Assembly (NCBI RefSeq): GCF_000021745.1 | Contig: NC_011666.1 | Coordinates: 3,313,001 to 3,377,000 of the forward strand | Direction of reading: 5' to 3' | DNA from: Methylocella silvestris BL2 | Lineage (GTDB): Bacteria; Pseudomonadota; Alphaproteobacteria; Rhizobiales; Beijerinckiaceae | DNA length: 64,000 bases | Shown: positions 1 through 57,452 of the stretch, piece by piece | Layout of the letters: every line of letters begins with the position of its first letter | Numbering within the stretch: position 1 is the stretch's first letter | Program-made: the position numbers and the translations under genes | The notes under the pieces: model-generated | Told to the model about the DNA's origin: nothing | The model's database searches: none | Seen by the model: the letters and a program-made list of their open reading frames with translations, nothing else

Positions 1-1180
<1,180 letters not shown>

Positions 1181-40396: not shown

Positions 40397-41032
40397 CTAC
40401 CGCCTGCGCCACTGACCGGCCCGGACGACGCCCTGGATCGCCGCCGCCCATTCGATTTTGACGCTGCGAATCGGCGCGGCGTTGTGGCTCTCGAGATCGA
40501 AAGTGCCAGCCTTCGCGCCGCGCTGGATTCGCTTGAGATAGCGCTTGCCATCGGCGGTGCGGACGGCCGCTTCCCAGCCGACCACCTCCTCGGCGTCGGC
40601 CCCTTCCCGCCAGCAGATGATGACGTCGCCGGGATCGTAGCGCGGCCACATGCTGTCGCCTTCGACCTGGAAGGCGATCGCGTCCGTCGCGATGGGGAAG
40701 GGCACCTCGATCTCATAAAGTCCCTCGGGGGGCGTCTGCTCGAATTCGGGAAAAATCTCCGCGCCGGCGCCGATGCGCCCGACGACATGGACCCGATTGC
40801 CAGGGGTTGGATCGCCGACGCCCTCAAGCAGCCAGGCGGCCGTCGTCTTCAAAACGGGCGCGAGCGCCGTGAGCGTTTCGGTGGTGACGCCGCGTCGGTC
40901 GCCGCTTTTCACGGCCCGTTTCAAATTGCGGATGGCGTCGGGCTTTCGCGCGGCAAGCGAGGCCGCATGCGCCGACAGGCCGACGACGGCGAGGCGGCTT
41001 TCGATTCGGGTGAGAACGTCTTCCAGCTCCAT
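40397..41032 (-). CDS. Phage repressor, HTH plus S24/LexA-like peptidase
   Basis: A 211-residue repressor. The N-terminal helical DNA-binding part (VLTRIESRLAVVGLSAHAAS, TTETLTALAPVLKTTAAWLL) is followed by the S24 fold. The catalytic Ser is in FQVEGDSMWPRYDPGDVIIC near residue 115-120 and the Lys in KRYLKRIQRG near residue 165. Self-cleavage after DNA damage would induce the prophage. Start is taken at ATG 41032 (MELEDVL) because the upstream ATG 41077 would lie inside an operator. Confidence 0.9.
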   Translation of the reverse strand: MELEDVLTRIESRLAVVGLSAHAASLAARKPDAIRNLKRAVKSGDRRGVTTETLTALAPVLKTTAAWLLEGVGDPTPGNRVHVVGRIGAGAEIFPEFEQTPPEGLYEIEVPFPIATDAIAFQVEGDSMWPRYDPGDVIICWREGADAEEVVGWEAAVRTADGKRYLKRIQRGAKAGTFDLESHNAAPIRSVKIEWAAAIQGVVRAGQWRRR

Positions 41033-41068
41033 GGCGGTAGAATAACCGTACGCGGCCGCGCATGCATC

Positions 41069-41110
41069 AGGTAACATTACCTTGACATATAAGGTAATGC
41101 TACCGTATCT
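41069..41110 (+). promoter_or_regulatory. Repressor operators 1-2 and early promoter
   Basis: AGGTAACATTACCT (41069-41082) and AGGTAATGCTACCG (41092-41105) both fit GGTA-N4-TACC. TTGACA at 41082-41087 and GTATCT at 41105-41110 with 17-nt spacing form a good forward promoter, and operator 2 fills the spacer. Repressor binding should block the GcrA-like gene and the genes after it. Confidence 0.8.
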
Positions 41111-41148
41111 CTCGTTTCGCCGCAGGACAAAGGGAAGGAAAAGTGGCT

Positions 41149-41490
41149 ATGACGATCCATACTGAAATCCGCAAATCCCGCTGGACGGGTGAACGCATCG
41201 CGAGATTGGGCTTTCTCCTCGGCATGGGCTGGGACGCCCGCCGCATCGCCGAAGATCCGCTGATTTCATCGACGCCGAACAATGTGCATCGTCAGGCGCA
41301 GCGCTTTGGCCTCGCCTTTCGCGCCGCCGCCGCCGCTCTCGCCCTGCGCCTGCCGCCCGAGGCGACCCAGCATTTCGACGCCGCGGCGGCCAAGCGCAGC
41401 CTGACCCGGGAAGCGATGATCCGGTTGCTTCTCCTCGTCGTCGCCGCCGATCCCGCCCTTCTCGACAATATTCTCGACGATGGATTTTGA
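41149..41490 (+). CDS. GcrA-like helix-turn-helix phage regulator
   Basis: A 113-residue protein in the position of cro. The first 60 residues follow the GcrA pattern: RWTGERIARLGFLLGMGWDA, RRIAEDPLISSTPNNVHRQA, then RFGL. GcrA-type proteins act with sigma-70 in alphaproteobacteria. The C-terminus is helical (RSLTREAMIRLLLLVVAADP). ATG 41149 lies 8-9 nt after AGGGAAGGAA; GTG 41143 is too close. Direct control by the operators above is likely. Confidence 0.7.
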   Translation: MTIHTEIRKSRWTGERIARLGFLLGMGWDARRIAEDPLISSTPNNVHRQAQRFGLAFRAAAAALALRLPPEATQHFDAAAAKRSLTREAMIRLLLLVVAADPALLDNILDDGF

Positions 41491-41492
41491 TC

Positions 41493-42008
41493 ATGGAGCC
41501 GGATGCGAAGATCAACGCCCTCGAGGCGCCTTTCCCGTCACAGCGAAACGGTCTGCCGGAGCGCTGGGATGCCGAGCAGGTGGCAAAAGCGCTTATCAAG
41601 GCCTTCGTCACCCTCGATCGGCTGCCGCGGTCGCGCGGGCCGAGGCAGCCGGGAGGTCATTGGCCGCTCCACCAGGTCGAATGGGCGGACCAGCTGGCGC
41701 AAGCCGAACTTGGCGAGGCTGAGCGCCGGGAGCGCGCCGCGGCTCTAAACCGGACCGAGCTTCGTCCAACCAGCGCCGAAATAGCCCAGATGGACGCAGT
41801 CATCGATTGGCTCCGTCATTTGCGGCTCGTCGACAGCGGCATGGCTCTCGTCACTAGCCTTTGGGCGGCGCGCACGGCGCGGGGCAGATCGGTCAAAGCC
41901 TTATGCAAGGAGAAAAAATGGGCGCCCCACACATTCTACCGCAAAAGAGCCAAAGCCCTTTCCTATCTGGCGTCATGGCTCAATGAACGCAACATGCTTG
42001 TGTTCTAA
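41493..42008 (+). CDS. DUF6362-like phage protein (possible packaging or small-terminase role)
   Basis: A 171-residue soluble protein. The region WDAEQVAKALIKAFVTLDRL, then PGGHWPLHQVEWADQLAQ, resembles DUF6362-type phage proteins. The C-terminal half has a helix-turn-helix look (GRSVKALCKEKKWAPHTFYR). It lies between the regulator and terminase large subunit, where a small terminase or DNA-recognition factor is expected, but that role is inference. ATG 41493 lies 2 nt after the previous stop. Confidence 0.6.
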   Translation: MEPDAKINALEAPFPSQRNGLPERWDAEQVAKALIKAFVTLDRLPRSRGPRQPGGHWPLHQVEWADQLAQAELGEAERRERAAALNRTELRPTSAEIAQMDAVIDWLRHLRLVDSGMALVTSLWAARTARGRSVKALCKEKKWAPHTFYRKRAKALSYLASWLNERNMLVF

Positions 42009-42447
42009 CGGGGGGGGGCTTTGCGCATTCGTCAAACGTGACGAATGCAACTCTTGGACGCGGCGCGCTCGCTGATGTGAAGCGCGGCGCAAGTTCTACG
42101 CACCACAGGATGAACCCATCACACTGCGATGTTAAGCCGTAAGATCACGGCGACGCAGGCTGTGCGAAAGCCTTGACGCGCGAGGAAATGTGAGCGCTCT
42201 ATGCGCGCATGTGCAGCGCCATTATTGCGTCGATAAATCAAACCCATCCCAACATCATGATCGCGATCAGGCGGCGCTGGGGCGCCGCCGCTGATGTGCC
42301 GCGTTTGAATAGCAGGCGCAAGGCCGGCGGGGATGCTGTAGAAACTCAGAGAGTCAGATCGCGTCACAGCAAATCCTGTAAGATGCTTCATATGATAGCT
42401 TGGCCGACGCATTGACTTGCAACGATTTGCAAGGGCAATATGCGCGC

Positions 42448-42516
42448 ATGCCGAGCCACACTTGCGTCAAACGCTTTCACTTCGTTCTGTGGTGTTTCGT
42501 AGCCGCTTTGCGATGA
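42448..42516 (+). CDS. Possible leaderless 22-residue ORF in repeat unit 2
   Basis: ATG lies 7 nt downstream of the -10-like CAATAT, where transcription would begin, so any translation would be leaderless. It reads MPSHTCVKRF..., closely related to the ORF in unit 3 (MPSHTCVERF...) with the same stop. Units 1 and 4 do not keep the frame. It may be only a by-product of repeat duplication. Confidence 0.2.
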   Translation: MPSHTCVKRFHFVLWCFVAALR

Positions 42517-42691
42517 TGTCGATAAGGTGAACGATGTTCACGGGCGCCCCTGCTGTCGATCGCGCCGCCGCGCATTCATTACGACGCGCCATCGCGCCAC
42601 ATCATTCATGTAGCTGAATACGTAAGATGCGCCTCTCTGCTACGGCCCCGATGCATTGACTTGCAACGATTTGCAAGGGCAATATGCGCGC

Positions 42692-42760
42692 ATGCCGAGC
42701 CACACTTGCGTCGAACGCTTTCAGTTCGCTCTGCGGTGTTCCGACGCCGCTTTGCGATGA
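42692..42760 (+). CDS. Possible leaderless 22-residue ORF in repeat unit 3
   Basis: Counterpart of the ORF at 42448-42516, with the same length and stop and several amino-acid changes. No ribosome site is present. It is recorded because the frame survives in both inner units. Confidence 0.2.
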   Translation: MPSHTCVERFQFALRCSDAALR

Positions 42761-43106
42761 TGTCGATAAGGTGAACGATGTTCGCCGACGCCCCTGTTGT
42801 CGACAGCATCGCCGAGCATTCATTACGGCGCGCCATCGCGCCACATCATTCATGTAGCTGAATACGTAAGATGCGCTTTTCCGCTACAGCTTGGATGCAT
42901 TGACTTGCAATCAAATGCAACGCAAATATGCGCGTATGCAGCGCCCCTGTTGCGTCACGACGCTATGAGCAATTTGTTCCGGCAGCGGCAGCTTATAGAA
43001 CTCTAGCGATCGCACGCCCGTCTTGCCGTTCCGCAGCGCGAAATCATCGCGCCGGCGCGCCTTGCCGCCCTTCGACTTGAATTTTCAACGACGAGACGGA
43101 TCGTGC

Positions 43107-44414
43107 ATGGTGACATTCAGCCCGGGCCAGGATGCGGCGCGCCGCTTGCTGGAGGGACCGCAGCGTTACACTTGTCTTGCCGGAGGCACGCGCTCTGGCA
43201 AGACTTTTCTGATCATCCGCGCAATCATTATACGCGCTCTCCAGGCTGAAGAGACCCGGCACGCGGTTCTGCGCTTCCATGCCAATGCGGCTCGCGCATC
43301 CATAGCGCTGGACACGCTGCCGCGCGTCATGCGCCTCTGCTTTCCGGACGCGACGTTGCGCGAGCGGCGGCAGGACGGATATTTCGAACTTGGGAATGGA
43401 TCGCGAATCTGGATCGGCGGCCTCGACGACAAAGACCGCGTGGAGAAAATACTCGGACTGGAATATGCGACAATTTTTTTGAATGAGGCGTCACAGATCC
43501 CCTATTCGTCGGCTTTGATCGCTTTCACGCGGCTCGCGCAGGTCGCGCCGCGGATTGATCAACGGGCTTTCGTCGATCTAAACCCTGTCGGCAAGACACA
43601 TTGGACCAATCAGCTGTTTGGAGAAAAGCGCGACCCGGTGTCGAGACGACCGCTGCCAGACCCGGAGAGCTACCGCCGCGCCTTCCTCAACCCGCCCGAC
43701 AACAAAGCGAATCTATCGCGCGAATTTCTGGCAAGTCTCTCTCATTTGCCGGAAAAGCAACGCAAGCGCTTTCTTGACGGCGTGTATGTGGATGAAGTCG
43801 ACGGCGCGCTTTGGACCTATGCCGGAATCGATGCAGGACGATGCGCGGCTGAGCGCATATCCGTGGATAAAAGAGCTGCGGTCGTTGTCGCTGTGGACCC
43901 ATCGGGAGCGGCGGGCCGGGACGATCTTGGAGCCGATGAGATCGGCATAATCGTCGCCGCCAGGGGCGTCGATGGCGACGCCTATATTCTGGAGGATCTA
44001 TCGTGCAGGGATGCGCCAGCCGTTTGGGGCAGGCGGGCAGTGGTGGCCTTCCATAGATATCAAGCCGACAGCATCGTCGCGGAAAGCAATTTTGGCGGTG
44101 AAATGGTCCGGGCGACGATACAGGCGGCGGATCGGAATGTTCCGGTAAAGCTCGTCACTGCGAGTCGCGGCAAGGCCGTGCGCGCCGAACCGATCTCGGT
44201 GCGCTACGCTCAAGGACAGGTCCATCATGTCGGTAGATTTCCCAAGCTGGAAGACCAGCTCTGCGCCTTTTCAAGCGCCGGCTATAACGGCGGCGGCAGC
44301 CCCGATCATGCCGATGCGGCGATCTGGGCGCTGACGCATCTGTTTGGCGCAGACGACGGGACCGGAATCATCGAGTTTTATCGCCGCGAAGCTGAAATCA
44401 AGCGTCGCTCCTGA
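43107..44414 (+). CDS. Terminase large subunit
   Basis: A 435-residue packaging motor. The ATPase domain has Walker A LAGGTRSGKTFLIIRAI at about residues 24-40, Walker B YATIFLNEASQIPYSS near residue 130 and a coupling region FVDLNPVGKTHWTNQLF. The RNase H-like nuclease begins VVVAVDPSGAAGRDD near residue 260 and continues to DHADAAIWALTHLF. Start is ATG 43107; the frame is open further upstream (to 43023) but without a ribosome site. It cuts and pumps phage DNA into the procapsid. Confidence 0.92.
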   Translation: MVTFSPGQDAARRLLEGPQRYTCLAGGTRSGKTFLIIRAIIIRALQAEETRHAVLRFHANAARASIALDTLPRVMRLCFPDATLRERRQDGYFELGNGSRIWIGGLDDKDRVEKILGLEYATIFLNEASQIPYSSALIAFTRLAQVAPRIDQRAFVDLNPVGKTHWTNQLFGEKRDPVSRRPLPDPESYRRAFLNPPDNKANLSREFLASLSHLPEKQRKRFLDGVYVDEVDGALWTYAGIDAGRCAAERISVDKRAAVVVAVDPSGAAGRDDLGADEIGIIVAARGVDGDAYILEDLSCRDAPAVWGRRAVVAFHRYQADSIVAESNFGGEMVRATIQAADRNVPVKLVTASRGKAVRAEPISVRYAQGQVHHVGRFPKLEDQLCAFSSAGYNGGGSPDHADAAIWALTHLFGADDGTGIIEFYRREAEIKRRS

Positions 44415-44457
44415 CCCGCTGGCCGCGACGCATTCGAAAAAAAGCGAAGGAGGCAGC

Positions 44458-45807
44458 ATGGTCGATCGCAGCGCCGGGACGAGAAGCTGGTCGCTCAATC
44501 CTTATGAGGTCGATATCCGCTTTACCGCCCCCTCGGCGAGCGAGGATGGCTGGTTCGGGCCGCAGCGGCCGATGACCCCTCTGGGGCCGCCGGACATCGC
44601 CGGGCGGCAGTGGGATTTTCCGGCTGGCTATAATCTTTCGACCACGCCGCGCAATACCGAACCGGTCACATTCGCGACCTTGCGCGGTCTTGCCGACGGC
44701 TATGATCTGTTGCGGCTTATCATAGAAACGCGGAAGGATCAGGCCGCGCGGCAATGCTGGACAATCGCCGGGCGCGACAAGATCGGAACCTCTGCTGGCC
44801 TCGGAGATCGCATCGGCGCGGCGACGCGCTTTTTCGCACGCCCGGACGGCAGCCGCTGCTTTGCCGACTGGCTGCGCATGCTGCTCGAAGAGGTCTTCGT
44901 CACGGACGCCGCAGCGCTCTACAAGCGGCGGGATCGGGCCGGCCGACTGATGGCGCTGACGCCTCTCGACGGCGCTACCATCAAGCCTGTCATCGACGGC
45001 TTTGGCCGCACGCCGGAACCCTATTTCAAGGATGGGCAGCTCGTCTATCCGACCGCCTATCAGCAGGTGCTGAAAGGGTTTCCGGCGATTGATTATTCCA
45101 TCCGCGACTTGATCTACAGGCCGCGCAATCTGCGCGTCAACCGGGTTTACGGCATGAGCCCGGTCGAGCAGATCGTGACGACCGTCAATATCGCGCTCCG
45201 CCGCCAGATGTATCTGCTCGACTATTTTACGGAAGGCAATATTCCAGACAGTCTGATTGGCGTTCCCGAGAATTGGACGCCGGACCAAATTGCGTCCTAC
45301 CAAAAATATTGGGACGCCTATTTCGACGGAGATGTCGGACGCCGCCGCCGCGCGAAATTTGTCCCCGGCGGCGTTGCGAAGACCTTTATCCAGACAAAAG
45401 AGCCGGAGCTCAAAGGGCCTTTCGACGAATGGCTCGCGCGCATCGTTTGCTTCGCCTTTTCGATCTCGCCGCAAGGCTTGACGCAGACAATGAACAGGGC
45501 CACCGCGGAGACGCAAAAGGAGCTTGCCGCCGAGGAAGGATTGGCGCCGATCCTCGCCTGGATCAAGGCGCTGATCGACGGCGTGCTGGCCGATGATCTG
45601 GAGGCGCCAGATCTCGAATTCGTCTGGACCTCCGGACACGAGACCGATCCGCTGACGCAGGAAACAATCCTTTCGAATTTCACGTCGAAAGGGATCCTGA
45701 CGATCAACGAAGCGCGCGCCGCGCTTGGCCGCATCCCCTTGCGAGAAGCTTCGGCAAACATGCCGATGACCTTGACGGCGGCCGGGTACGTGCCCCTCCC
45801 GGATTGA
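44458..45807 (+). CDS. Phage portal protein
   Basis: A 449-residue portal that forms the dodecameric DNA channel. Landmarks are GYDLLRLIIETRKDQAARQC near residue 85, DAAALYKRRDRAGRLMALTP, RVNRVYGMSPVEQIVTTVNI near residue 225, and FSISPQGLTQTMNRATAETQ near residue 340, where portals typically end. An AAGGAGG site lies just before ATG 44458, so the in-frame extension overlapping terminase is rejected. Confidence 0.88.
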   Translation: MVDRSAGTRSWSLNPYEVDIRFTAPSASEDGWFGPQRPMTPLGPPDIAGRQWDFPAGYNLSTTPRNTEPVTFATLRGLADGYDLLRLIIETRKDQAARQCWTIAGRDKIGTSAGLGDRIGAATRFFARPDGSRCFADWLRMLLEEVFVTDAAALYKRRDRAGRLMALTPLDGATIKPVIDGFGRTPEPYFKDGQLVYPTAYQQVLKGFPAIDYSIRDLIYRPRNLRVNRVYGMSPVEQIVTTVNIALRRQMYLLDYFTEGNIPDSLIGVPENWTPDQIASYQKYWDAYFDGDVGRRRRAKFVPGGVAKTFIQTKEPELKGPFDEWLARIVCFAFSISPQGLTQTMNRATAETQKELAAEEGLAPILAWIKALIDGVLADDLEAPDLEFVWTSGHETDPLTQETILSNFTSKGILTINEARAALGRIPLREASANMPMTLTAAGYVPLPD

Positions 45808-45880
45808 GGTCGATCCCCTCAATTGATCTCTTCTGGGCCGGCGAGACGCCTTCTCAATTGCAAACTGTCAAGGAGGACGT

Positions 45881-46966
45881 ATGTCCGCGTTGCGAATGTT
45901 CATCCCGATTACCAAGGTCGACGCCGCGCAGCGCCTGGTCTATGGCCTCGCCACGGCCGAAGCGGAGGATCGCTCGGGAGAGATCTGCGACTACGCCTCT
46001 ACCAAACCGCTTTATGAGAAATGGTCGGCCGAGATCGCCGCTGCGACCGGCGGCAAATCGCTCGGCAATTTGCGCGCGATGCACGGCCCCGTCGCGGCGG
46101 GCAAGGTGACGCAGATCAACTTCAATGATGAGCAAAAGCAGATTGAGATCTGCGCGAAAGTGATCGATGACGCGGAGTGGAACAAAGTCGTGGAAGGCGT
46201 CTACACCGGTTTTTCGCAAGGCGGCGCCTACGCGCGGCGTTGGACAGACGATCAAGGGCTGACGCGCTATGCAGCGGACCCGAATGAAATTTCGCTGGTC
46301 GATCTACCCTGCCTCCCACAGGCGCATTTTGAAATGATCAAGCTCGACGGATCGCGAGAATTGCGGCGCTTCGGAAAGACGGTTGACGCGGCGGCGCAAG
46401 TGCAAAACCTCCTTGATGAGCTGCGGGCTCTTGACGGTGACGTGGCGGAAAGCGCGGAAGGCGAGGCCGGCGCGCCCGGCCTGGCGGCTCAGTTGAGCGA
46501 TATCCTGATAAGGGCGGCCGCGCTGCTACGTGAGGCGCCACAAGATAACGTGGCGGAGGAAGGATCGACGCCTGACGCGGCGGCGCAAGACAAATCTGCA
46601 TTTGCAGGCGAATCGACCGGCGCCGCCGCGAAGCGCGCGCAGGGACTCAAAGCATATCAAAGCGGCCGGCAAAGCCGCGCCACCGCAACGGCCGTCGAGG
46701 GCGGCTATGGATTACACGACGACGTCTCCGCCAATCTGGAAAAGCGCTTCGACGCCCTCGCATCGACGCTTGCCGATGTGCTGGAGCGTGTGAAGCAGAT
46801 CGAGGCGCAGCCCCTGCCTCTGCCTTTCTACGGGCCAGTGCGCGCGATTGCGAAATACGAAGACGGCCGCGGCGATGAAGTGGAGAAGCTTCTTGCCGAT
46901 CCGGAGACGCTATCAATTCTCGCCATCAAGCTCGCCCAGCGTAACGCCAGGTCGCCGCTCCGCTAA
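45881..46966 (+). CDS. Prohead protease (XkdF-like), probably with scaffold tail
   Basis: A 361-residue protein. The first about 160 residues match XkdF-like putative serine proteases: VYGLATAEAEDRSGEICDYA, KSLGNLRAMHGPVAAGKVTQ (probable catalytic His), VVEGVYTGFSQGGAYARRW (probable Ser) and LVDLPCLPQAHFEMIK. The rest is Ala/Glu-rich and helical, typical of an internal scaffold. AAGGAGG precedes ATG 45881. It presumably processes the capsid protein during head maturation. Confidence 0.85.
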   Translation: MSALRMFIPITKVDAAQRLVYGLATAEAEDRSGEICDYASTKPLYEKWSAEIAAATGGKSLGNLRAMHGPVAAGKVTQINFNDEQKQIEICAKVIDDAEWNKVVEGVYTGFSQGGAYARRWTDDQGLTRYAADPNEISLVDLPCLPQAHFEMIKLDGSRELRRFGKTVDAAAQVQNLLDELRALDGDVAESAEGEAGAPGLAAQLSDILIRAAALLREAPQDNVAEEGSTPDAAAQDKSAFAGESTGAAAKRAQGLKAYQSGRQSRATATAVEGGYGLHDDVSANLEKRFDALASTLADVLERVKQIEAQPLPLPFYGPVRAIAKYEDGRGDEVEKLLADPETLSILAIKLAQRNARSPLR

Positions 46967-47134
46967 TCGGGACGCCGGCGGGTCCGCCTGACGCGCCCGC
47001 CAATCGGCGCGACGATTTCTTCAACTCAACTTTCGCTGCGCGCCGCGCAGGTGAATTGGCGGTGGTCGACCTCACGTTCGCGACGGGCGCACTTCGGGCT
47101 CATCACGCCAAAGCAATTCCGTCAGGAGTAAATC

Positions 47135-48649
47135 ATGACCATGCAGACCGAGTCTCAGGACATTCTCGACCGGCTCAAGACGGCTCAATCGAAGCCGCTT
47201 GGCGATCCGCGCTTCAGGAGTCTGATGGGTCTTGAGAAGAGCACTTTTTCTGAAAGCAACAGCGCCGGTTCGGGGCTCACCTTCTACGATCTCGAGCTTG
47301 GCGCGAAGTTTCTTTACCCGGTCATGACGCCGCTTCGCAACTCTATTCCGAGAGTTTCCGGCAAGGGCGGCATACAGGCGTCCTGGCGCGCGATAACCGC
47401 GATCAACACGACCGGGCTGCGCTTTGGCGTATCTTCCGCCAATCGCGGCGGCGTGCTTGCCGTTGCGACGCAGGACTACGCGGCAAATTACAAGGGAATC
47501 GGCGTTGAAACCAGCGTCGATTTCGAGGCCCAATTCGCCGGTCAGGAATTCGACGACATTCGTGCGATCGGCGCCAAGACCGGCCTCGAGGCCTTGATGA
47601 TCGGCGAGGAGGCGATGATCCTCGGCGGCTGTTCCTCTGCGATCGCAGCGACGCCAACCCCGACTCTCACGGCGCAGGCGACCGGCGGATCGCTTCCGGC
47701 GCAGACCTGGTCGATCGTTTGCGCAGCTCTGACGCTCGACGGATTGATGAACGGCTCGGTCGCAGGCGGGGTTCAGGGCTCGATCACACGCACGAATGCC
47801 GATGGCTCAACGGACACCTTCGGCGGCGGGGTCGCCAAGAAAAGCGCCAATGCGACGGTCGCGACCACGGGGGCGGCAGGCCTTGTGAATGCGACCGTCG
47901 CTCCGGTGTCGGGCGCGATGGGATACGCCTGGTTCTGGGGTGCGGCGGGCTCTGAAATTCTCGGCGCGATCACGACGATCAATTCGCTCGTCATCACCGC
48001 CGCCGCCGCTGGAACGCAGACTGCCGCGTCGCTTGGCGCCAGCGACAATTCGGCCAATGCGCTCGCCTTTGACGGGCTGATCTACCAGGCGACGAAACCC
48101 GGATCCGGCGCGACGCTCTACACCATGGGGACCGGATCAGCGGGCGTCGGAGTCGGCCTGACAACCGACAGCGCCGGCGGCGTCATGGAGATTGACGCGG
48201 TGCTGAAATCCATGTGGGACAATTATCGTCTCTCCCCCGACACCATGTGGGTCAGTTCGCAAGAAGCGCTCAACATTTCGAGAATCATCCTCAAGGGCTC
48301 GCAGACCGCTGCGCAACGCTTCGTTTTCGAAACCGCGCAAGACCTTATCGGCGGCGGCATTATGGTCCGCACTTACCTCAACCGGTTTTCGATGCAGGGC
48401 GGCAATGTGATCGATATCAGGGTGCATCCCAATATGCCGGCCGGAACCATCCTCCTCACCACCAAGACTTTGCCTTATCCGCTTGCGGGCGTCGGCAACG
48501 TCATTCAGATCCGCACCCGGCAAGACTATTATCAGATCGAATGGCCGCTGCGGACGCGCAAATATGAATATGGCGTCTACTCCGATCAGGTTCTGCAGAA
48601 CTATTTTCCGCCCTCAATGGGGTTGATCACGAATATTGGCAACGTCTGA
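47135..48649 (+). CDS. Major capsid protein with inserted Ig/FN3-like domain
   Basis: A 504-residue capsid subunit. Residues about 35-190 and 350-504 fit an HK97-type shell protein (YDLELGAKFLYPVMTPLRNS, GVETSVDFEAQFAGQEFDDI, SPDTMWVSSQEALNISRIIL, GVGNVIQIRTRQDYYQIEWP). Between them about 130 Gly/Ala/Thr-rich residues with VNATVAPVSGAMGYAWFWGA look like an inserted beta-sandwich. Such insertions usually decorate the capsid surface. CAGGAG precedes ATG 47135. Confidence 0.88.
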   Translation: MTMQTESQDILDRLKTAQSKPLGDPRFRSLMGLEKSTFSESNSAGSGLTFYDLELGAKFLYPVMTPLRNSIPRVSGKGGIQASWRAITAINTTGLRFGVSSANRGGVLAVATQDYAANYKGIGVETSVDFEAQFAGQEFDDIRAIGAKTGLEALMIGEEAMILGGCSSAIAATPTPTLTAQATGGSLPAQTWSIVCAALTLDGLMNGSVAGGVQGSITRTNADGSTDTFGGGVAKKSANATVATTGAAGLVNATVAPVSGAMGYAWFWGAAGSEILGAITTINSLVITAAAAGTQTAASLGASDNSANALAFDGLIYQATKPGSGATLYTMGTGSAGVGVGLTTDSAGGVMEIDAVLKSMWDNYRLSPDTMWVSSQEALNISRIILKGSQTAAQRFVFETAQDLIGGGIMVRTYLNRFSMQGGNVIDIRVHPNMPAGTILLTTKTLPYPLAGVGNVIQIRTRQDYYQIEWPLRTRKYEYGVYSDQVLQNYFPPSMGLITNIGNV

Positions 48650-48725
48650 GCCATCATGGGGCGATCGCCTGCGATCGCTCCATTTTCCAGAAGCTCCAAG
48701 AGCGCAACGACGAAGGGCTGTGTCT

Positions 48726-49157
48726 ATGAAGCTTCGCGCTCCGGCAAGTTGCGAGGCCGTCACACATAAGGGACGGGCTCTTGAGATTGCTGCAGACGGA
48801 TCGTTGGAGGTTGAGGCCGCGGATTGGCAGGCGCTGGCGGCGCATGGCTTCCGTCTTTGGGAAACGGGCCCCTCGCCGCAAGGAAGCAGATCCGCGGCGG
48901 GGGCGGCAAGACGCCAAGCCGCAGCTCCCGCAACGCGAAGCCTCGCAAATTTATTCGTGCGCGCGCCGGCGCCGCGACCGGCAGTCGAAACGCCACAACA
49001 TGCTGACGCCGCCAACGACGTCGACGCGAACGCAATAGCACAACTCAATCGTCGTCAACTGTTCTCCTTTCTCAAAGAGCGCCGGATTGGCGTGAGTATT
49101 CCGATCACGAACGAGAAACTCCGCGCGCTAGCTCTGCGCGCGATTGAGTTCGTCTAG
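48726..49157 (+). CDS. Phage head-region protein, unknown
   Basis: A 143-residue protein after the capsid gene. The N-terminal part MKLRAPASCEAVTHKGRALE and AADWQALAAHGFRLWET looks like a small head-region beta domain. A Pro/Ala-rich linker follows, then a short C-terminal helical motif (NRRQLFSFLKERRIGVSIPI, NEKLRALALRAIEF) resembling a HeH/LEM-type DNA-contact fold. Position suggests a connector accessory. ATG 48726 follows GAAGGG. Confidence 0.6.
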   Translation: MKLRAPASCEAVTHKGRALEIAADGSLEVEAADWQALAAHGFRLWETGPSPQGSRSAAGAARRQAAAPATRSLANLFVRAPAPRPAVETPQHADAANDVDANAIAQLNRRQLFSFLKERRIGVSIPITNEKLRALALRAIEFV

Positions 49158-49241
49158 ACGCGATCTGATCGCGAATCACCCGCATTCGTGACTGATGGAG
49201 TCCTCGCTTCGAGGGACAGCCGCATAGAAGGGTATCGCTCG

Positions 49242-50060
49242 ATGGCGTCTACTTACGATCTCGCCAAGCTCGCCGACGTCAAAGACTGGCTCGATATTTC
49301 AGGGGCGGACGACGACGCCCTGCTTTCGCGGCTCATCACGAGACTCAGCCGCGGGATCTTGAATTATCTCGATCGGCAATCGATCCTGCCGACGAATTTC
49401 TCCGAAACATTTGACGGCGGCGGCGAGCGATCTCTCCTGCTGGGTCAGTGGCCGGTCAACGCGGTGCTGGGCTGCGCTGTGAACGGCCTGCCGATTCCCG
49501 CGGCGCCGGCGATCGCGCCGGATTCACTCCGGCCGGGATTTGTTCTGGATCAGGGCGACATCGCTCCTCCAGGACGCCGTCAGCGCCTTTCGCTTCGCGG
49601 GCGGCGCTTCGATTGCGGCGTACAGAATGTGTCTGTGTCCTATTGGGCAGGCTACCAAATTGCCGACGAGGCGATCACGATCCCGCTGGAGGCGCCCTAT
49701 TCGGTCACAGCTCTGTCGCCCTACGGCGATTGGGCGAGTGACGGCGGCGTCATTTCGAACGGACTTGCAATGGCGCGCGTAGCGGCAAGTCCCGCGGCCG
49801 GTCAATATTCGGTGGCCGATGGAGTCTACACATTCAACGGGGCAAACGCAGGATCGGCGGCTGCCGTCACCTATGGCTATGTGCCGGCAGATCTTGCGAT
49901 CGGTTGCATGGATTGGGTCGCTGAGCGCTACTCCTATCGGTCGCGCATCGGGCAACAATCGAAATCACTCGGCGGCCAAGAGACGATGGCTTATCTTGTG
50001 AAGGACATCCCCGATTTCGTAGCCGCCGCCTTGCAGCCTTACCGCCGCGTCGCACTATGA
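49242..50060 (+). CDS. Head-tail connector protein with Ig-like insertion
   Basis: A 272-residue protein. The N-terminal YDLAKLADVKDWLDISGADD and LITRLSRGILNYLDRQSILP are typical of gp6-like head completion proteins. About residues 150-215 hold a beta-rich module (SPAAGQYSVADGVYTFNGAN) that also occurs in the tail tube protein. The C-terminal helix CMDWVAERYSYRSRIGQQSK returns to the connector fold. It overlaps the next gene by 4 nt. Confidence 0.78.
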   Translation: MASTYDLAKLADVKDWLDISGADDDALLSRLITRLSRGILNYLDRQSILPTNFSETFDGGGERSLLLGQWPVNAVLGCAVNGLPIPAAPAIAPDSLRPGFVLDQGDIAPPGRRQRLSLRGRRFDCGVQNVSVSYWAGYQIADEAITIPLEAPYSVTALSPYGDWASDGGVISNGLAMARVAASPAAGQYSVADGVYTFNGANAGSAAAVTYGYVPADLAIGCMDWVAERYSYRSRIGQQSKSLGGQETMAYLVKDIPDFVAAALQPYRRVAL

Positions 50061-50503
50061 GTGGGCTAACGCTCGATCCCGATGCGTTGCATCAGGCGCT
50101 GCTTCAGCGCGCCGACACAGCGCGAACGGCGCTTGAAGAGAGGATTGTCAGAAAACTGTCTGGCGAAGCCTTGCAAAAACAGTCGGGGGCCCTGGCCGCT
50201 TCGATCCGCTCGTCGATCGCGGATGATGGCGGCGCAATATCGATCATCGCGTCGAGCGTTGGGGTGGCTTATGCGGCCATCCAGGAGTTTGGCGGAAAAA
50301 CCGCGGCGCATGACATCGTGGCCGTGAAAGCTCGGGCGTTGAATTTTAATGGCGGCGGCGGAGAAGTCTTCGCCAAAAGCGTCCATCACCCGGGCTCGAA
50401 CATTCCGGCCCGCTCCTTTTTCCGCGGATCGATGTCCGAGATGAGCGACGACATCGCTGCGGGTCTCAAGGAGGCAGCGCTGGAAAGTCTCCGGAAAGAC
50501 TGA
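50057..50503 (+). CDS. HK97 gp10-like head-tail joining protein
   Basis: A 148-residue protein. Pattern LEERIVRKLSGEALQKQSGA, then SIIASSVGVAYAAIQEFGGK near residue 75 and the C-terminal HHPGSNIPARSFFRGSMSEM with FLRS-like residues, as in gp10/tail-completion proteins. ATGA overlap with the connector gene. Confidence 0.85.
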   Translation: MSGLTLDPDALHQALLQRADTARTALEERIVRKLSGEALQKQSGALAASIRSSIADDGGAISIIASSVGVAYAAIQEFGGKTAAHDIVAVKARALNFNGGGGEVFAKSVHHPGSNIPARSFFRGSMSEMSDDIAAGLKEAALESLRKD

Positions 50504-50531
50504 TCCCGACGCGCCAGATCAAGGAGCGGCC

Positions 50532-50978
50532 ATGGCTACGACAAAGCGGGAAGCTGCGTTGGCGGCGCTGCAAAGCGTCATCGCCGGCGCCTATGGGTGG
50601 AAACTCGGCCCCTCGCGCCGGCTTAAGCTCTGGAGCGATGTTCCTTCAGCGATGCGGCCGGCGTGTTTCCTGTATGAGGGCGGCCAGGAAACATATATTT
50701 GGAGCGAGAGCGCAACGGCGAAGCGTGTGATGGAGGTCAAGCTCTTCATTTATCTCAACGCCAAAGACCCATCGATCACAGGCGCTGCGCTTTTGAACGA
50801 TGTGATGGACGCGCTTGACGGCGCGCTTTCCATTTCCGGGGCAGATTTTACGCGTGGCCGCAATACGCTCGGCGGCGGCGTGCACCATTGCCGCATCGAC
50901 GGGAAAACTCTTAAAGATCCCGGCGATCTCGACGGCGACGCGCTGTTGATCGTTCCGGTCAAACTCATCCTTCCCTAA
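50532..50978 (+). CDS. Tail terminator-like protein
   Basis: A 148-residue small alpha/beta protein (MATTKREAALAALQSVIAGA, LWSDVPSAMRPACFLYEGGQ, VKLFIYLNAKDP, LDGDALLIVPVKLILP). Size, fold pattern and its place just before the tail tube gene fit a gpU-type tail terminator. AAGGAG precedes ATG 50532. Identity beyond that is inference. Confidence 0.7.
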   Translation: MATTKREAALAALQSVIAGAYGWKLGPSRRLKLWSDVPSAMRPACFLYEGGQETYIWSESATAKRVMEVKLFIYLNAKDPSITGAALLNDVMDALDGALSISGADFTRGRNTLGGGVHHCRIDGKTLKDPGDLDGDALLIVPVKLILP

Positions 50979-51040
50979 CGCGCTTTACGAGCCGTCGCGT
51001 GCCCGCGACATCGGCTTTGAACGAACCAGCGAGGTCACTC

Positions 51041-51778
51041 ATGTATAGTTTCGGCTCGGGCGTGTTGCTCGGAACCCGCACAGATATCGCGAATGCGACG
51101 CCGATCAATTTCGGTCTGGTCCAGGAAGTGACGATCGAGGAAACCGCGACCATCAAGGAGTTGACCGGCCAGTTCCAGCGTCCTGTGGCGATCGCCAGGG
51201 GCACGATCAAGACCACCGGAAAAGCCAAGGTCGCGCGTATCTCTGGATTGGCTTTCGCCAGCCTTTTCTACGGCGTGACGCCGACCTCGGGTCAAATCGC
51301 GACATCCTTTGCCGAAGCCGCGGCCGTTCCGGCTACGTCTCCCTACACCGTGACTGTGGCGAACGCCGCGACGATTGCCGATGATGAGGGCGTTCTCTAT
51401 GCCGCGACGGGCCTGCCTTTCACAAAAGTTGCTTCGACTCCCGCCGTCGGGCAATATTCCATTTCCTCGGGCGTCTTGACGTTCAACGCCGGCGACGCCG
51501 GAAAGGCGGTATTGATGAGCTACACCTATTCCGTCACGGGTTCGGGCCAGAAATTTACCGTCGCCAATCAGCTGCTTGGCGTGACCCCGACGTTTCAGGC
51601 CGTGTTCTACACAACCTTCCAGGGACAGGCCGTGACGCTGAAGCTCAACAATTGCACCTCAAACAAGCTGAGCTTTCACACCAAGCTCGAAGACTTCGTT
51701 ATGCCGGAGTTCGATTTCTCCTGCTTCGCCGACGCCGCCGGAAATGTGATGACCTGGTCTTTCGCGGAGGCATCGTGA
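51041..51778 (+). CDS. Major tail tube protein with Ig-like insertion
   Basis: A 245-residue protein. The N-terminal VLLGTRTDIANATPINFGLV, EVTIEETATIKELTGQFQRP and GTIKTTGKAKVARISGLAFA match siphophage tube proteins. About residues 100-163 hold the GQYSISSGVLTFNAGDAG module shared with the connector. The fold resumes with GVTPTFQAVFYTTFQGQAVT and ends KLEDFVMPEFDFSCFADAAG. ATG 51041 follows GAGG. It overlaps the next start by 1 nt. Confidence 0.82.
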   Translation: MYSFGSGVLLGTRTDIANATPINFGLVQEVTIEETATIKELTGQFQRPVAIARGTIKTTGKAKVARISGLAFASLFYGVTPTSGQIATSFAEAAAVPATSPYTVTVANAATIADDEGVLYAATGLPFTKVASTPAVGQYSISSGVLTFNAGDAGKAVLMSYTYSVTGSGQKFTVANQLLGVTPTFQAVFYTTFQGQAVTLKLNNCTSNKLSFHTKLEDFVMPEFDFSCFADAAGNVMTWSFAEAS

Positions 51779-52083
51779 TGAGGCCGACTTCGGAGACGAT
51801 CCGGCTCGGAGCGCGCGAATGGTCGATCCGGCCGCTGACTTTGCGTCAGGTTCAGGAGATTGAACCCATTCTGATGGCGGGAGCATCAGAGTCAAAGAGC
51901 AATGTTTCGGCCGCCATGGCGATCGTCTCGATTGCCCTTCAGCGCGACAACGCCGAGGCCGCATCGGCGCTTGACGATGTTGAAGCGACGGCGCCCGAGA
52001 TCGCGGCGGCGATGGCTGCGGTTCTGCGTCTTGGCGGATTCTTGCCGGCCGTCGAAGGAGAGTGCGCGCCGGGGGAAGCGTGA
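51778..52083 (+). CDS. Tail assembly chaperone, first frame (gpG-like)
   Basis: A 101-residue protein (TIRLGAREWSIRPLTLRQVQ, SAAMAIVSIALQRDNAEAAS, AAMAAVLRLGGFLPAVEGE). Position between tail tube and tape measure is that of the gpG chaperone. The following gene lies in the -1 frame and overlaps it, as in lambda G/GT. A G-run CGGGGGAAGC sits just before the stop, but it is not a classical slippery heptamer. Confidence 0.72.
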   Translation: MRPTSETIRLGAREWSIRPLTLRQVQEIEPILMAGASESKSNVSAAMAIVSIALQRDNAEAASALDDVEATAPEIAAAMAAVLRLGGFLPAVEGECAPGEA

Positions 52084-52382
52084 GCGGGCGCGCTGGCATA
52101 GCTGACGCCCGCATTGATTTTGGCTTCATCTATTCAAGGCTGATGTCGGCTTGCGGATACACGCCGGCTGAGATCGATGAAATGACGCTGCATGACGTGC
52201 TCGGGCTGTTCGCCTATTGGCGCGACTACCCGCCGACCCACGAGATCCTGAAATGCGTGTATGGCGTCCAGCGCAAGCCTGAAGCGGCAAATCCCAAGTG
52301 CGGATATGATCCAAGCGGTATCGGCGGCCTGATCGCGCGATTTCCCGACGGGTTTGTACGGGCGATCGAAGGCGGCCGTTAG
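52080..52382 (+). CDS. Tail assembly chaperone, second frame (gpT-like)
   Basis: A 100-residue protein in the -1 frame relative to the preceding gene (DFGFIYSRLMSACGYTPAEI, DEMTLHDVLGLFAYWRDYPP). GTG 52080 overlaps the previous stop as GTGA. GTG 52062 is another in-frame candidate. It could be made by re-initiation or as a frameshift fusion. The DEMTLHDVxGLFxYW pattern is common just before tape-measure genes. Confidence 0.7.
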   Translation: MSGRAGIADARIDFGFIYSRLMSACGYTPAEIDEMTLHDVLGLFAYWRDYPPTHEILKCVYGVQRKPEAANPKCGYDPSGIGGLIARFPDGFVRAIEGGR

Positions 52383-52450
52383 TTCGCTGGGTAAGACGCC
52401 TCTTGTTGCGCTAAAGTCGTGGGGGCGATCAACCTTGAGGAAATTTGTCA

Positions 52451-53713
52451 ATGGCAGATGACGTCACTATTCGGTTTACCGCCGACGTCTCCGACCTGCA
52501 GCGTGGCATACAGCAAGCAAACAGTGCCCTGGCCGCAACGACGACGACGCTCAATGCGGGAGCAAGTCAGATCAATGCGTCCTTCGCCAATCTGACGCAG
52601 GCGTATGTCAGCAGCTCGGGGCAGGAAATAACAAGCGCGCGCGCAGCGAGCGAGGCGCAGATCGCCATCGCGCGACAGACGGAGCAGGCGCGCTTCGATA
52701 TTGCATTGAACGGCGCAAAGCTGAATACAGCGCTCATCCGGGAGCAAGCGCAGACAGGCCAGATATCGCGCCAGGAAGAGCTTGCAGGCCTGCTTGCTTC
52801 CGAGAAGCAACGGGAAGATATCGAGGCGCTGCATCTCCAGAGTTTGCAGGGTCTATATGCGCAGGGGAGCGCGGCCTACGCGAACGTGCAACGGCAAATC
52901 GACGAACTCGCAAGCCAGTCCGTGCTTCGGCGCCAGGAAATCGACAGAGAGGTCAACCAGCAAATCTATGCCGACTACAAGCGCACATTCGAACAAATCG
53001 GCTCAAGCATGACGCAGTCCGTGATGGGGTTGATCCAGGGCCAACAGACGCTGGGGCAGGCAGCTCAGCGGATCGCGGCGTCGATCGTCCAATCCTTCAT
53101 CGCCGCCCGGGTGCGATTTGTCGCCGACTGGCTTGCCGGACTCGCCACAAACACTGCGGCGACGACTGCAGCCGAGGCTACACAGACAAGCGCAGTCGCG
53201 GCCGGCGTAGCAACACGCTCGGGCCTTCAGACGACGGCGGCGGCGGCCTCGAACGCGAATATTGTCGCAAACGTGTTGAAGAGCATCACCGCCTCAGCGG
53301 CTGAGACCTTTGCCGGGATTTTCGGCTTCCTGTCCCCGGTTATGGGCCCTGCGGCCGCCGGGCCGGCCGCAGGAGGGGAGGCGACTGTGCTCGGCGCGGG
53401 CGCAGGAATCGCTTCTTTCGCGGTGGGCGCCTGGAGTTTGCCAAGCGATATGGTGGCGCAGGTCCATCAGGGTGAAATGATCATTCCAGCAGGGCAGGCG
53501 GCAGCTGTTAGAAGCGCGCTATCGGGCGGCGCAACCGGTGGCGGCGGCGCGGTCCATGTTCATCACTCGACCAATTTCAACGTGCAATCCATTGACGCAG
53601 CGGGCGTCAAGCAATTCTTCAAAACCAACGGAAAGCAGATTTTGCGCACGATCAACGACGGCGTCCGCACGGGCTCTCATCTTGCCCTGAGCAAGCTCGG
53701 GCGCGCGCTTTAG
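52451..53713 (+). CDS. Tail tape measure protein (short)
   Basis: A 420-residue protein. The first about 190 residues are Ala/Gln-rich coiled helix (LQRGIQQANSALAATTTTLN; EAQIAIARQTEQARFDIALN). A hydrophobic Ala-rich region follows near residues 240-320, and a C-terminal domain has PSDMVAQVHQGEMIIPAGQA and VHVHHSTNFNVQSIDAAGVK. The small size implies a short tail. ATG 52451 was chosen over TTG 52445. Confidence 0.8.
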   Translation: MADDVTIRFTADVSDLQRGIQQANSALAATTTTLNAGASQINASFANLTQAYVSSSGQEITSARAASEAQIAIARQTEQARFDIALNGAKLNTALIREQAQTGQISRQEELAGLLASEKQREDIEALHLQSLQGLYAQGSAAYANVQRQIDELASQSVLRRQEIDREVNQQIYADYKRTFEQIGSSMTQSVMGLIQGQQTLGQAAQRIAASIVQSFIAARVRFVADWLAGLATNTAATTAAEATQTSAVAAGVATRSGLQTTAAAASNANIVANVLKSITASAAETFAGIFGFLSPVMGPAAAGPAAGGEATVLGAGAGIASFAVGAWSLPSDMVAQVHQGEMIIPAGQAAAVRSALSGGATGGGGAVHVHHSTNFNVQSIDAAGVKQFFKTNGKQILRTINDGVRTGSHLALSKLGRAL

Positions 53714-53717
53714 TCGG

Positions 53718-55982
53718 ATGAGTTATGTCAACGGGGTCAATCTTCTTCCTGCGACGGGAGAGTTTACCTATGACGTCGCGCCGCACCGGGGCAAGCGCGT
53801 CACAGAGCCAGAGTCGGTCGCGATCAATACTTATTTCTCGCCTGCGGGAGTTCGGACGGATCTCGACTTCGCGATCGATCAATTGCAGGCTGAGTTTCCG
53901 GCGTGCCAGACGGTCGCCCTGGTCATCGCCTGGTTCGGCAATTCGGTGGACGCGGCGACCTGCAAGATCTATCCATCAACAACCTACATTGGGGGCTCTT
54001 TCGAAAGCTGGGATGGTGGAGCCTGGAGCGTCGACCACTGGCGATGCTCCGGCCTGACGCAACAATCGCCGGAGCTCATCCCGATCTCGTCGAGCGGCGA
54101 ATCCTTCAACTACGGAGGAACGCCTTCCGATCCGTCCGTCGTGAGATGTATCCGCAGCCTCAAGGCGCGCGGTCTGCGGGTCGTCTTTTACCCCTTCATT
54201 TTGATGGACGCGCCCGGATTTCCGTGGAGGGGCCGCATCTCGTACCAATCATCGGATGTTTCGGCCGACGCTGCGTCGGCGGTCGAGCATTTTCTTGGCT
54301 CGGCGGCGCCGTGGCAGTTCACGCAGGACGCCACAGACCTGACCGTCAGCTATGCGGGAGCTCCCGACGATTATTCTTTTCGAAGGATGATCCTTCATTA
54401 CGCAAATCTTTGCATTCTGGCCGGCGGCGTTGATTTATTCCTGCTTGGATCCGAACTTCGCGGCCTTGAGACCATTCGCGGCCCCGCATGGACCAAGGCG
54501 GGAGCCGTCGACGCCTCCGGAGCGGCAATTTGGGACTATCCCTTCGTCGCGGGTCTCGTGTCCCTCTGCGACGACGTCCGAGCTCTGTTTGATGCGGCCG
54601 GCCTGACTCGGGATCCGGTTGGTCTCCACAATCTTATCTCCTATGCCGCCGACTGGTCTTCCTGGATGGGTTTCCAGCACGATGAGGCCAAGGGACAATG
54701 GCCACATCTCGATCAGCTCTGGGGTCATGCAAATGTCGATCTCGTTTGTTTCGACAATTATCTCCCTCTGAGCGACTGGACAACGGGCGATGGCGGCGTT
54801 GATTTTCGCAATTGGTCGGCGCCGGCCGCGACCGCGTGGCCGCAGGCAGATGTCGCGACTCTAGGCCTCGGCCTCGAAGGGGTGCCGCGCCTCGCCAGCA
54901 AAGCCTATCTCAAAGCCAATATCGAAGGCGGAGAGAAATTCAATTGGTTCTACAGGGATAGTGAAAATCTCGGGCGCGGCCTCGATCCGAGTGGCAGCGA
55001 TCTTCAGGTTTCAAGGCCGCGGGGGGACAGGCTGGATCAGAGCCGTCAACGCTATTATCCAGACCAACAGATACTGGGAAATAAGCAGCTGCGGTGGTGG
55101 TGGAACAATATCCACAAGGCTGTCTACGATAATGGGGATGGGAACGGATATGCGCCGCATGGACAGGCGACCGCATGGGCGGCCCGGTCCAAGCCCATAA
55201 CATTTACGGAATATGGATTCCCGACATGTGATCGTGCGACAAATCAGCCCAATGTCTTTTTTGATACAAAGTCGAGCGAGAGCGCCACGCCATTTTGGTC
55301 GGTCTGGCGTCCAGTTGAAGGGGCCGGGTTCGCCCCGCGTGTAGACGGAAATCTTGCCTTGCTCGCCCTGCAGGCGATTTATGAATATTGGGTGACGGAT
55401 GGGCATAATGAGACATCCGCGACCGGCGTAAATATGATAGAAACCGCCTTCATGTCGGTCTGGAACTGGGACGCGCGCCCCTTCCCTGTGTTTCCCGTCA
55501 GAGGCGATGTTTGGGGCGACGCCGGCAACTGGAGCTCAGGCACCTGGCTCGGGGGCAAGGGACCGTTCATTCCTCTGCCGCAACCTGACGCCCCGCCAGA
55601 TCCGGTCAGTGTACCAGCCTTCCCGCTGCTGTCAGGCAGGGGGTGGTCAGTGAAGTACAAACCATCGTTCGACACAATCATCAACGAAACCGCATCCGGA
55701 AGAAGCGCCCGAAGCCCGAAAATGGCGACGGCTACATGGGACATAGAGCTTTCCTTTGACAGCCTGCGCTTCGCCGATACCAACGGCGACGTGCCAAAGC
55801 TAATCGGCTTCTATGCCGGCGTGCGGGGCCAGGCGGCGGCGTTCACCTTTCCTGTCCCTGTTGAACTCGGCCTCGGACCGGAGGTCTTGTGCCGATTTGC
55901 AGATGATCAGGAAGATCTGGAGGAGTTCATGAGCAGGCTGTGGAGCGCAGAGACAGTCACGCTGAGGACCGTCAAGCCATGA
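53718..55982 (+). CDS. GTA-type TIM-barrel tail protein fused to a DUF2460-like domain
   Basis: A 754-residue tail-tip protein. Residues about 1-620 match the glycoside-hydrolase-like TIM barrel of gene transfer agent tail proteins (SVAINTYFSPAGVRTDLDFA, TYIGGSFESWDGGAWS, CIRSLKARGLRVVFYPFILM, LFLLGSELRGLETIRGP, FTEYGFPTCDRATNQPN). After a Pro-rich linker, the last roughly 125 residues (FPLLSGRGWSVKYKPSFDTI ... LWSAETVTLRTVKP) resemble the DUF2460 protein encoded by the next gene. In R. capsulatus GTA the barrel is part of gp15, so here it is split and refused. Confidence 0.85.
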   Translation: MSYVNGVNLLPATGEFTYDVAPHRGKRVTEPESVAINTYFSPAGVRTDLDFAIDQLQAEFPACQTVALVIAWFGNSVDAATCKIYPSTTYIGGSFESWDGGAWSVDHWRCSGLTQQSPELIPISSSGESFNYGGTPSDPSVVRCIRSLKARGLRVVFYPFILMDAPGFPWRGRISYQSSDVSADAASAVEHFLGSAAPWQFTQDATDLTVSYAGAPDDYSFRRMILHYANLCILAGGVDLFLLGSELRGLETIRGPAWTKAGAVDASGAAIWDYPFVAGLVSLCDDVRALFDAAGLTRDPVGLHNLISYAADWSSWMGFQHDEAKGQWPHLDQLWGHANVDLVCFDNYLPLSDWTTGDGGVDFRNWSAPAATAWPQADVATLGLGLEGVPRLASKAYLKANIEGGEKFNWFYRDSENLGRGLDPSGSDLQVSRPRGDRLDQSRQRYYPDQQILGNKQLRWWWNNIHKAVYDNGDGNGYAPHGQATAWAARSKPITFTEYGFPTCDRATNQPNVFFDTKSSESATPFWSVWRPVEGAGFAPRVDGNLALLALQAIYEYWVTDGHNETSATGVNMIETAFMSVWNWDARPFPVFPVRGDVWGDAGNWSSGTWLGGKGPFIPLPQPDAPPDPVSVPAFPLLSGRGWSVKYKPSFDTIINETASGRSARSPKMATATWDIELSFDSLRFADTNGDVPKLIGFYAGVRGQAAAFTFPVPVELGLGPEVLCRFADDQEDLEEFMSRLWSAETVTLRTVKP

Positions 55983-57450: not shown

Positions 57451-57452
57451 TC

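What the first reader, a model, noticed from the sequence alone, without database searches (positions are those of the whole stretch)
42173..43020. Array of four 244-bp promoter-like units upstream of terminase
Units at 42173, 42412, 42656 and 42900 repeat TTGAC, an inverted repeat CTTGCAA-N4-TTGCAAG (perfect in the inner two), a -10-like hexamer at a fixed offset and then ATGCGCGCATG, itself a palindrome with ATG at offset 36. Downstream parts differ between outer and inner units. I know no standard phage element of this form. Options: stacked regulated promoters for the late genes, a family of small RNAs or leaderless peptides, a DNA-packaging (pac) recognition array, or a decoy that titrates a DNA-binding protein. 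Fixed spacing between the boxes argues for selected promoters.
Basis: partly seen in the sequence, partly recalled or inferred. Interest (0 to 1): 0.78.

Follow-up and report, generated by a model that had tools for sequence, protein, structure and literature searches.

The report
Repeated late promoter of phage-like element
Four related copies of a composite promoter sit in front of the packaging gene of a phage-like element in a methanotroph-related bacterium; comparison with relatives suggests that each copy loads an 'ignore stop signals' protein onto RNA polymerase, a known phage trick that is here repeated in tandem and tied to an uncharacterised protein family.

Summary
The array is real: boxes at 42173, 42412, 42656, 42900 (spacing 239, 244, 244), the only four matches in the 4.3 Mb genome. 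Relatives carry mostly 1-4 copies, 171-671 bp apart, upstream of orthologous terL. In a 397-genome scan all 21 sites lie upstream of terL; reversed pattern, none. From 78 boxes the unit is a composite promoter: GTA(A/C)GA starting exactly 34 bp before TTGAC (66 of 77, one mismatch allowed), half-sites TTGCRA-N4-TTGYRA, TATRCGCG 26-27 bp from TTGAC (75 of 78). The 'inverted repeat' is really a direct repeat. Terminator-like hairpins are enriched just beyond. The neighbouring DUF6362-like protein models as sigma-R4-like, with antiterminators Q21 and AlpA among the best structural matches. Best explanation: tandem late promoters loading a DUF6362-like, Q-type antiterminator, behind a CI-like repressor; it works like lambda Q/Q21, AlpA and Caulobacter GafZ. 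Promoter array: well supported by comparison. Antitermination: inferred. The roughly 25-kb element has an RcGTA-like tail and no tyrosine integrase found: GTA-like, unproven.

The parts
40397..41077 (-). CI-like S24 repressor gene (proposed switch)
   Evidence: Pfam Peptidase_S24 E 1e-10; PHROG repressor phrog_4 E 8e-15
41070..41104 (.). Divergent regulatory region: two GGTANNNNTACC palindromes (41070-41081, 41093-41104) around TTGACA (41082-41087); proposed CI-like operators over the regulator operon promoter
   Evidence: Sequence; palindromes of this type seen by eye in the 13 intergenic regions printed (window included), several imperfect
41143..41490 (+). Small GcrA-like HTH gene, candidate activator at the upstream GTAAGA box
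   Evidence: Weak GcrA matches, Pfam E 0.01 and NCBIfam E 0.02, both below cut-off; orthologs precede the DUF6362-like gene
41487..42008 (+). DUF6362-like gene (ATG at 41493), candidate Q-like antiterminator
   Evidence: Pfam DUF6362 E 3e-4, below curated cut-off; phrog_6836 E 9e-13, unknown function; no NCBIfam family; AF2 models and VIA matches
42139..42235 (+). Unit 1: GTAAGA 42139-42144, TTGAC 42173-42177, half-sites GCGCGA/ATGTGA (divergent), TATGCGCG 42200-42207
42378..42474 (+). Unit 2: GTAAGA 42378-42383, TTGAC 42412-42416, TTGCAA 42417-42422 and 42427-42432, TATGCGCG 42439-42446; transcription start expected near 42448 (inferred)
42622..42718 (+). Unit 3: GTAAGA 42622-42627, TTGAC 42656-42660, TTGCAA 42661-42666 and 42671-42676, TATGCGCG 42683-42690
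42733..42757 (+). Terminator-like hairpin GCGGTGTTCCGACGCCGC followed by TTTGCGA after unit 3 (modest)
   Evidence: score 15.8; also found
42866..42962 (+). Unit 4 (terL-proximal): GTAAGA 42866-42871, TTGAC 42900-42904, TTGCAA 42905-42910 and ATGCAA 42915-42920, TATGCGCG 42927-42934
43107..44414 (+). Terminase large subunit (terL), first gene of the presumed late operon
   Evidence: Pfam Terminase_6C E 1e-11, Terminase_3 E 2e-10; PHROG phrog_979 E 4e-60
44344..60963 (+). Presumed late operon: portal, protease-like, a capsid candidate (by position; its PHROG has no known function), and RcGTA-like tail genes (GTA_TIM, DUF2460, BR0599, Phage-tail_3/Rcc01698_C)

Best explanation
The array is a tandem set of four composite sigma-70 late promoters driving the structural operon (terL onward) of a roughly 25-kb phage-like, GTA-like element. 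Each unit has an upstream activator box (GTAAGA, about 66-70 bp before the expected start), a -35 (TTGAC), a two-half-site direct repeat (TTGCRA-N4-TTGYRA, 10-bp period) in the -35/-10 spacer, a -10-like TATAT-type sequence, and a conserved first ~25-30 transcribed bases. The spacer repeat is proposed to be the loading site of the neighbouring DUF6362-like protein, which would attach to RNA polymerase and make it pass hairpin terminators just downstream, as Q21, lambda Q, AlpA and GafZ do. A CI-like S24 repressor would hold the GcrA-like/DUF6362-like operon off. Shown here by comparison: array, fixed spacings, conservation, position before terL, enriched terminator-like hairpins, element context. 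Supported by a modest fold match: the DUF6362-like protein resembles sigma-R4/Q21/AlpA. Inferred: promoter activity, binding of DUF6362 to the repeat, antitermination, role of the GcrA-like protein, induction by repressor loss.
Confidence: 0.66

Rival explanations
1. Tandem late promoters activated at initiation only: the spacer repeat and the upstream box bind the GcrA-like and/or DUF6362-like proteins as ordinary activators, without antitermination.
For: Fixed -34 box and spacer boxes; GcrA-like gene in the same operon; 69 of 78 boxes, the window's included, lack a strong hairpin behind them.
Against: Terminator-like hairpins are enriched right behind the boxes; a site inside the -35/-10 spacer is unusual for an activator (recalled); fold matches to Q21 and AlpA.
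Confidence: 0.2
2. Late promoters repressed by a protein that binds the spacer direct repeat (operator), released on induction.
For: A repeat between -35 and -10 is a classic operator position (recalled).
Against: The element's own CI-like repressor has a different candidate operator, GGTANNNNTACC, at its divergent promoter; I saw no second repressor gene between the CI-like gene and terL.
Confidence: 0.08
3. DNA-packaging (pac/cos) recognition array read by the terminase.
For: It lies directly before terL, where a small-terminase gene could be expected; tandem copies resemble some pac sites (recalled).
Against: Internal layout is that of a promoter (TTGAC, -10-like sequence at 26-27 bp, upstream box at -34).
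Confidence: 0.04
4. Family of small RNAs or leaderless small peptides encoded by the repeats.
For: Each unit would give a transcript; an ATG at offset 36 is conserved in the window and an ATG/GTG there in 57 of 78 boxes.
Against: Only the first ~25-30 bases are conserved; ORF lengths vary from 2 to 200 codons, median 26; folding of the conserved 40-nt start is near random (mean z -0.25); no Rfam family at threshold in the array.
Confidence: 0.02

Closest known systems
Phage 21 Q / Q-binding element late promoter (pR')
   Same: Direct-repeat element between -35 and -10; sigma-R4-like protein (PMC6606751, passages); regulator gene before the late operon and a terminator soon after the start (recalled for phage 21)
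   Different: Half-sites TTGCRA 10 bp apart here; TGAGCA there, contacted bases at -21 and -13, so about 8 bp apart; no sequence similarity detected; 1-4 promoters instead of one; extra upstream box
Caulobacter GafY/GafZ control of the CcGTA promoter (PMC11150451, sections)
   Same: Repressor switch, two-gene regulator operon, element between -35 and -10; Caulobacter is the only one of 14 control genomes with GTA_TIM
   Different: GafZ element is a near-palindrome; single TSS; IHF and a far-upstream GafY site; the DUF6456 family (to which GafA-type proteins belong) has no match in this genome while Caulobacter rings
AlpA of Pseudomonas aeruginosa (PMC7969949, passages)
   Same: Antiterminator element between -35 and -10; terminators begin 26-54 nt after the start; prophage-derived system
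   Different: No sequence relation detected; no tandem promoter array described in the passages seen
RcGTA / GafA (PMC9638019, abstract and passages)
   Same: Tail gene families GTA_TIM, DUF2460, Phage-tail_3/Rcc01698_C (that these are RcGTA tail genes is recalled); regulators unlinked from the structural cluster in several genomes
   Different: No DUF6456 in this genome; head genes look different (recalled, not compared by a call)

Membership tests
Q-type antitermination late promoter | Protein-binding element located between -35 and -10 of the late promoter | tested here: inconclusive
   A conserved direct repeat sits in the spacer of 78 boxes; that a protein binds it is not tested
Q-type antitermination late promoter | Intrinsic terminator shortly downstream of the promoter | tested here: inconclusive
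   Enriched overall and canonical in 9 of 78 boxes, none of those 9 in the window
Q-type antitermination late promoter | Sigma-dependent pause (-10-like sequence) in the initial transcribed region | tested here: inconclusive
   The first ~30 bases are conserved but no convincing -10-like sequence was recognised by eye
Q-type antitermination late promoter | Dedicated antiterminator encoded in the element | not testable with these tools
Q21 protein family | Homology to Q21 | tested here: inconclusive
DUF6362 (PF19889) | Score above the curated cut-off | tested here: not met
   21.5 bits against 31; therefore called DUF6362-like; phrog_6836 matches at E 9e-13
Gene transfer agent (RcGTA type) | RcGTA-like tail module | tested here: met
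   GTA_TIM E 3e-106, DUF2460, BR0599, Phage-tail_3, Rcc01698_C; only GTA_TIM in the genome
Gene transfer agent (RcGTA type) | No integrase or replication genes; vertical inheritance at a fixed locus | tested here: inconclusive
   No PF00589 match within the element; serine recombinases and replication genes not searched; housekeeping flank; egtB-labelled neighbour kept in 4 named genomes but not in all; no tree compared with a host tree
Gene transfer agent (RcGTA type) | Particles carrying random host DNA | not testable with these tools
   -
GafA/GafZ regulators (DUF6456) | DUF6456 domain | tested here: not met
   No PF20057 match anywhere in this genome at E 0.001, while control Caulobacter rings; none in Pfam scans of the two regulators

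The most novel reading that the evidence does not exclude
DUF6362-like proteins are an unrecognised family of Q-type processive antiterminators, and in Beijerinckiaceae they run a domesticated, non-replicating GTA-like element whose late operon is fed by a tandem array of 2-4 antitermination promoters. The extra promoters would compensate for the missing template amplification that a replicating phage has when it makes its late proteins.
Probability: 0.35. Interest if true: 0.8.

Novelty: new variant of a known kind. Interest (0 to 1): 0.64.

Why it matters
It offers a concrete, testable function for a protein family of unknown function (DUF6362-like/phrog_6836) and links it to a precise DNA site. 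It also points to a GTA-like element in methanotroph-related bacteria that lacks the known GafA/GafZ-type regulator, with a built-in handle (the box pattern) for finding its control regions, and raises the question why late promoters would be multiplied in an element that may not replicate.

Tried and rejected
Is the TTGCAA repeat the CI-like repressor's operator? Rejected: the divergent CI promoter carries GGTANNNNTACC palindromes instead, and TTGCAA-N4-TTGCAA is not found there.

Rfam: one weak CRISPR-DR27 hit at 42474-42498, E 0.17, below its gathering score; taken as chance. Twelve relative loci gave none.

Phage and plasmid collections: DNA matches covering 3-5% of the array only (1 and 8 records); no DUF6362-like protein in the phage collection by tblastn at E 0.01.

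Hairpin over the terL Walker-A codons (43174-43204): looks like a terminator in the window and forms in many but not all of 51 orthologs; the protein motif CLAGGTRSGKTF constrains the bases, so inconclusive. Of those 51 rows, L066 started at a hand-set coordinate and is out of register.

Conserved RNA hairpin at the 5' end: not supported overall (mean z -0.25), although a few boxes have one.

Sequence search of the DUF6362 profile against PDB: two unrelated weak hits. NCBIfam gave no family for the DUF6362-like protein. VIA lists had no lambda Q row among those shown, which says nothing by itself.

Papers (open-licence library): DUF6362, no paper. Searches for GTAs in Beijerinckiaceae, Methylocella with prophage and tandem Q-type late promoters showed no report of this system in the titles and abstracts listed; one listed paper, PMC12142844, was checked by passages and does not describe it there. 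GafA, Q21/QBE and Q21/GafZ gave the comparison papers; Brx1/Brx2 gave only unrelated ones.

Rows dropped before counts: of 91 regex hits, L086 (same sequence as L045) and one L045 hit at the start of its DUF6362-like gene were removed, then identical sequences, leaving 78 from 35 sources. L101/L102, L137/L138 and L057/L121 are near-duplicates or the same organism and stay in the 40-locus count. The regex misses some boxes seen by others (L050 at 3295, L054 at 3528), so copy numbers are lower bounds. In one search the half-site spacing of 4 is fixed by construction. In one search identity weighting at 60% left an effective n of 69. Viral contigs were capped: 80 of 157 relatives kept.

Full report
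Observation. The window lies in a single-contig 4.3 Mb genome. Between a DUF6362-like gene ending at 42008 and terL starting at ATG 43107 there are about 1.1 kb holding four boxes at 42173, 42412, 42656 and 42900. Units 2 and 3 are 91% identical over 244 bp; other leaders differ. A 35-base pattern with up to 3 mismatches and a composite pattern GTAAGA-N28-TTGAC each find exactly these four places in the genome; reversed controls give 0 and 1. The four units align in register with four in M. silvestris TVC; the promoter core is more alike (71-91%) than the leader behind it (35-83%) in each unit.

Conservation. A family-wide DNA search drew attention to hits, mostly of the same genus, confined to the box and repeated about 245-320 bp apart. 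Read in place, they lie just upstream of orthologous terL genes. The terminase protein brought 41 loci from named genomes (many of them distant) and the best 80 of 157 viral contigs. Among 40 loci (window and near-duplicates included) with terL at 65% identity or more and at least 1000 nt upstream, 36 have at least one box and 30 at least two by one regular expression, a lower bound; spacings run from 171 to 671 bp, and the last box lies 118-344 bp before terL. A scan of 397 family genomes with a stricter pattern found 13 genomes and 21 distinct sites; each of the 23 loci fetched, plus the two own-genome sites, lies upstream of terL, and the reversed pattern gave 0 in all 397.

Anatomy. From 78 distinct boxes: TTGAC nearly invariant; first half-site TTGC(A/G)A, second TTG(C/T)(G/A)A, one helical turn apart; TATRCGCG 27 bp (64 of 78) or 26 bp (11 of 78) from TTGAC. 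Because TTGCAA is its own complement, the window's inner units cannot tell direct from inverted; relatives can: direct fits better in 28, inverted in 2, 39 ties. L052, L055 and others carry TTGCGA-N4-TTGCGA, which is not palindromic. Upstream, GTA(A/C)GA starts exactly 34 bp before TTGAC in 66 of 77 boxes (one mismatch allowed), against 0.6 expected per offset; box selection did not use it. Block means of information drop to 0.13 bits or less from 30 bp after TATRCGCG on.

Behind the box. Terminator-like hairpins number 18 in 78 leaders against 5.7 in dinucleotide shuffles. With a graded score, the 75 nt after the box average 10.9, against 6.9 for mononucleotide shuffles and 7.1 for a control stretch further down; 9 boxes score 20 or more, control 0. 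These nine are textbook hairpins with T runs (L052-L056, L116, L117, L137), starting 59-74 bp after the first base of TTGAC. In the window only unit 3 has a modest one (42733-42750).

The element. Downstream genes include portal, a protease-like gene, a capsid candidate and an RcGTA-like tail module with GTA_TIM, DUF2460, BR0599 and Phage-tail_3/Rcc01698_C. GTA_TIM occurs once in the genome; among 14 control genomes only Caulobacter has it. No tyrosine integrase (PF00589) lies in the element; the nearest is about 26 kb beyond the window; serine recombinases and replication genes were not searched. MOSC, UPF0262 and RecJ genes follow from about 2 kb after the window's end, hence the estimate of about 25 kb. 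terL is interrupted or split in G198, G159, G076 and G185, and in G076 only about 0.1 kb is left between the DUF6362-like gene and terL, as in a decaying cluster. This is GTA-like; particle production was not tested.

Interpretation. The layout (element between -35 and -10, terminator soon after the start, regulator gene at the Q position, repressor switch) is that of processive-antitermination late promoters: Q21 (PMC6606751, passages read), AlpA (PMC7969949, passages) and GafZ of the Caulobacter GTA (PMC11150451, abstract, sections 9 and 12 and part 1 of section 14). It is not filed as a member of any of these protein families. New here are the tandem repetition, the extra fixed upstream box, and the candidate protein family. 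Why the promoter is multiplied is unknown; compensation for absent replication is a hypothesis.

Noticed in passing
window 53718-60963: RcGTA-like tail module (GTA_TIM, DUF2460, BR0599, Phage-tail_3/Rcc01698_C, Mtd_N); the only GTA_TIM of the genome, in a genome without DUF6456: candidate GTA of Beijerinckiaceae.
   Followed up: partly
window 41070-41104: Two GGTANNNNTACC palindromes around TTGACA between the CI-like and GcrA-like genes, recurrent in relatives: candidate operators.
   Followed up: partly
L066 (Methylocapsa palsarum), G159, G076, G185: terL orthologs interrupted or split; in G076 there is hardly room for an array: the cluster seems to be decaying in some species.
   Followed up: no
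window 37491-39751: Two minus-strand genes that I recall as ergothioneine-type egtD/egtB (name not tested by a call) lie beside the element; an egtB match stays next to it in M. silvestris TVC, M. tundrae, M. palsarum and Beijerinckia sp. L45.
   Followed up: partly
window 43174-43204: 12-bp hairpin followed by TTTTC over the terL Walker-A codons; may act as an attenuator but is constrained by the protein motif.
   Followed up: partly
window 1090-1189: TPP riboswitch on the minus strand (Rfam RF00059, 61 bits).
   Followed up: no
L048, L047, L072 just after the box: In some Methylocapsa and MAG loci the first transcribed bases form a short hairpin (GTGCGCGAATTGCGCAC and the like), unlike the stronger terminators further down in other loci.
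   Followed up: no
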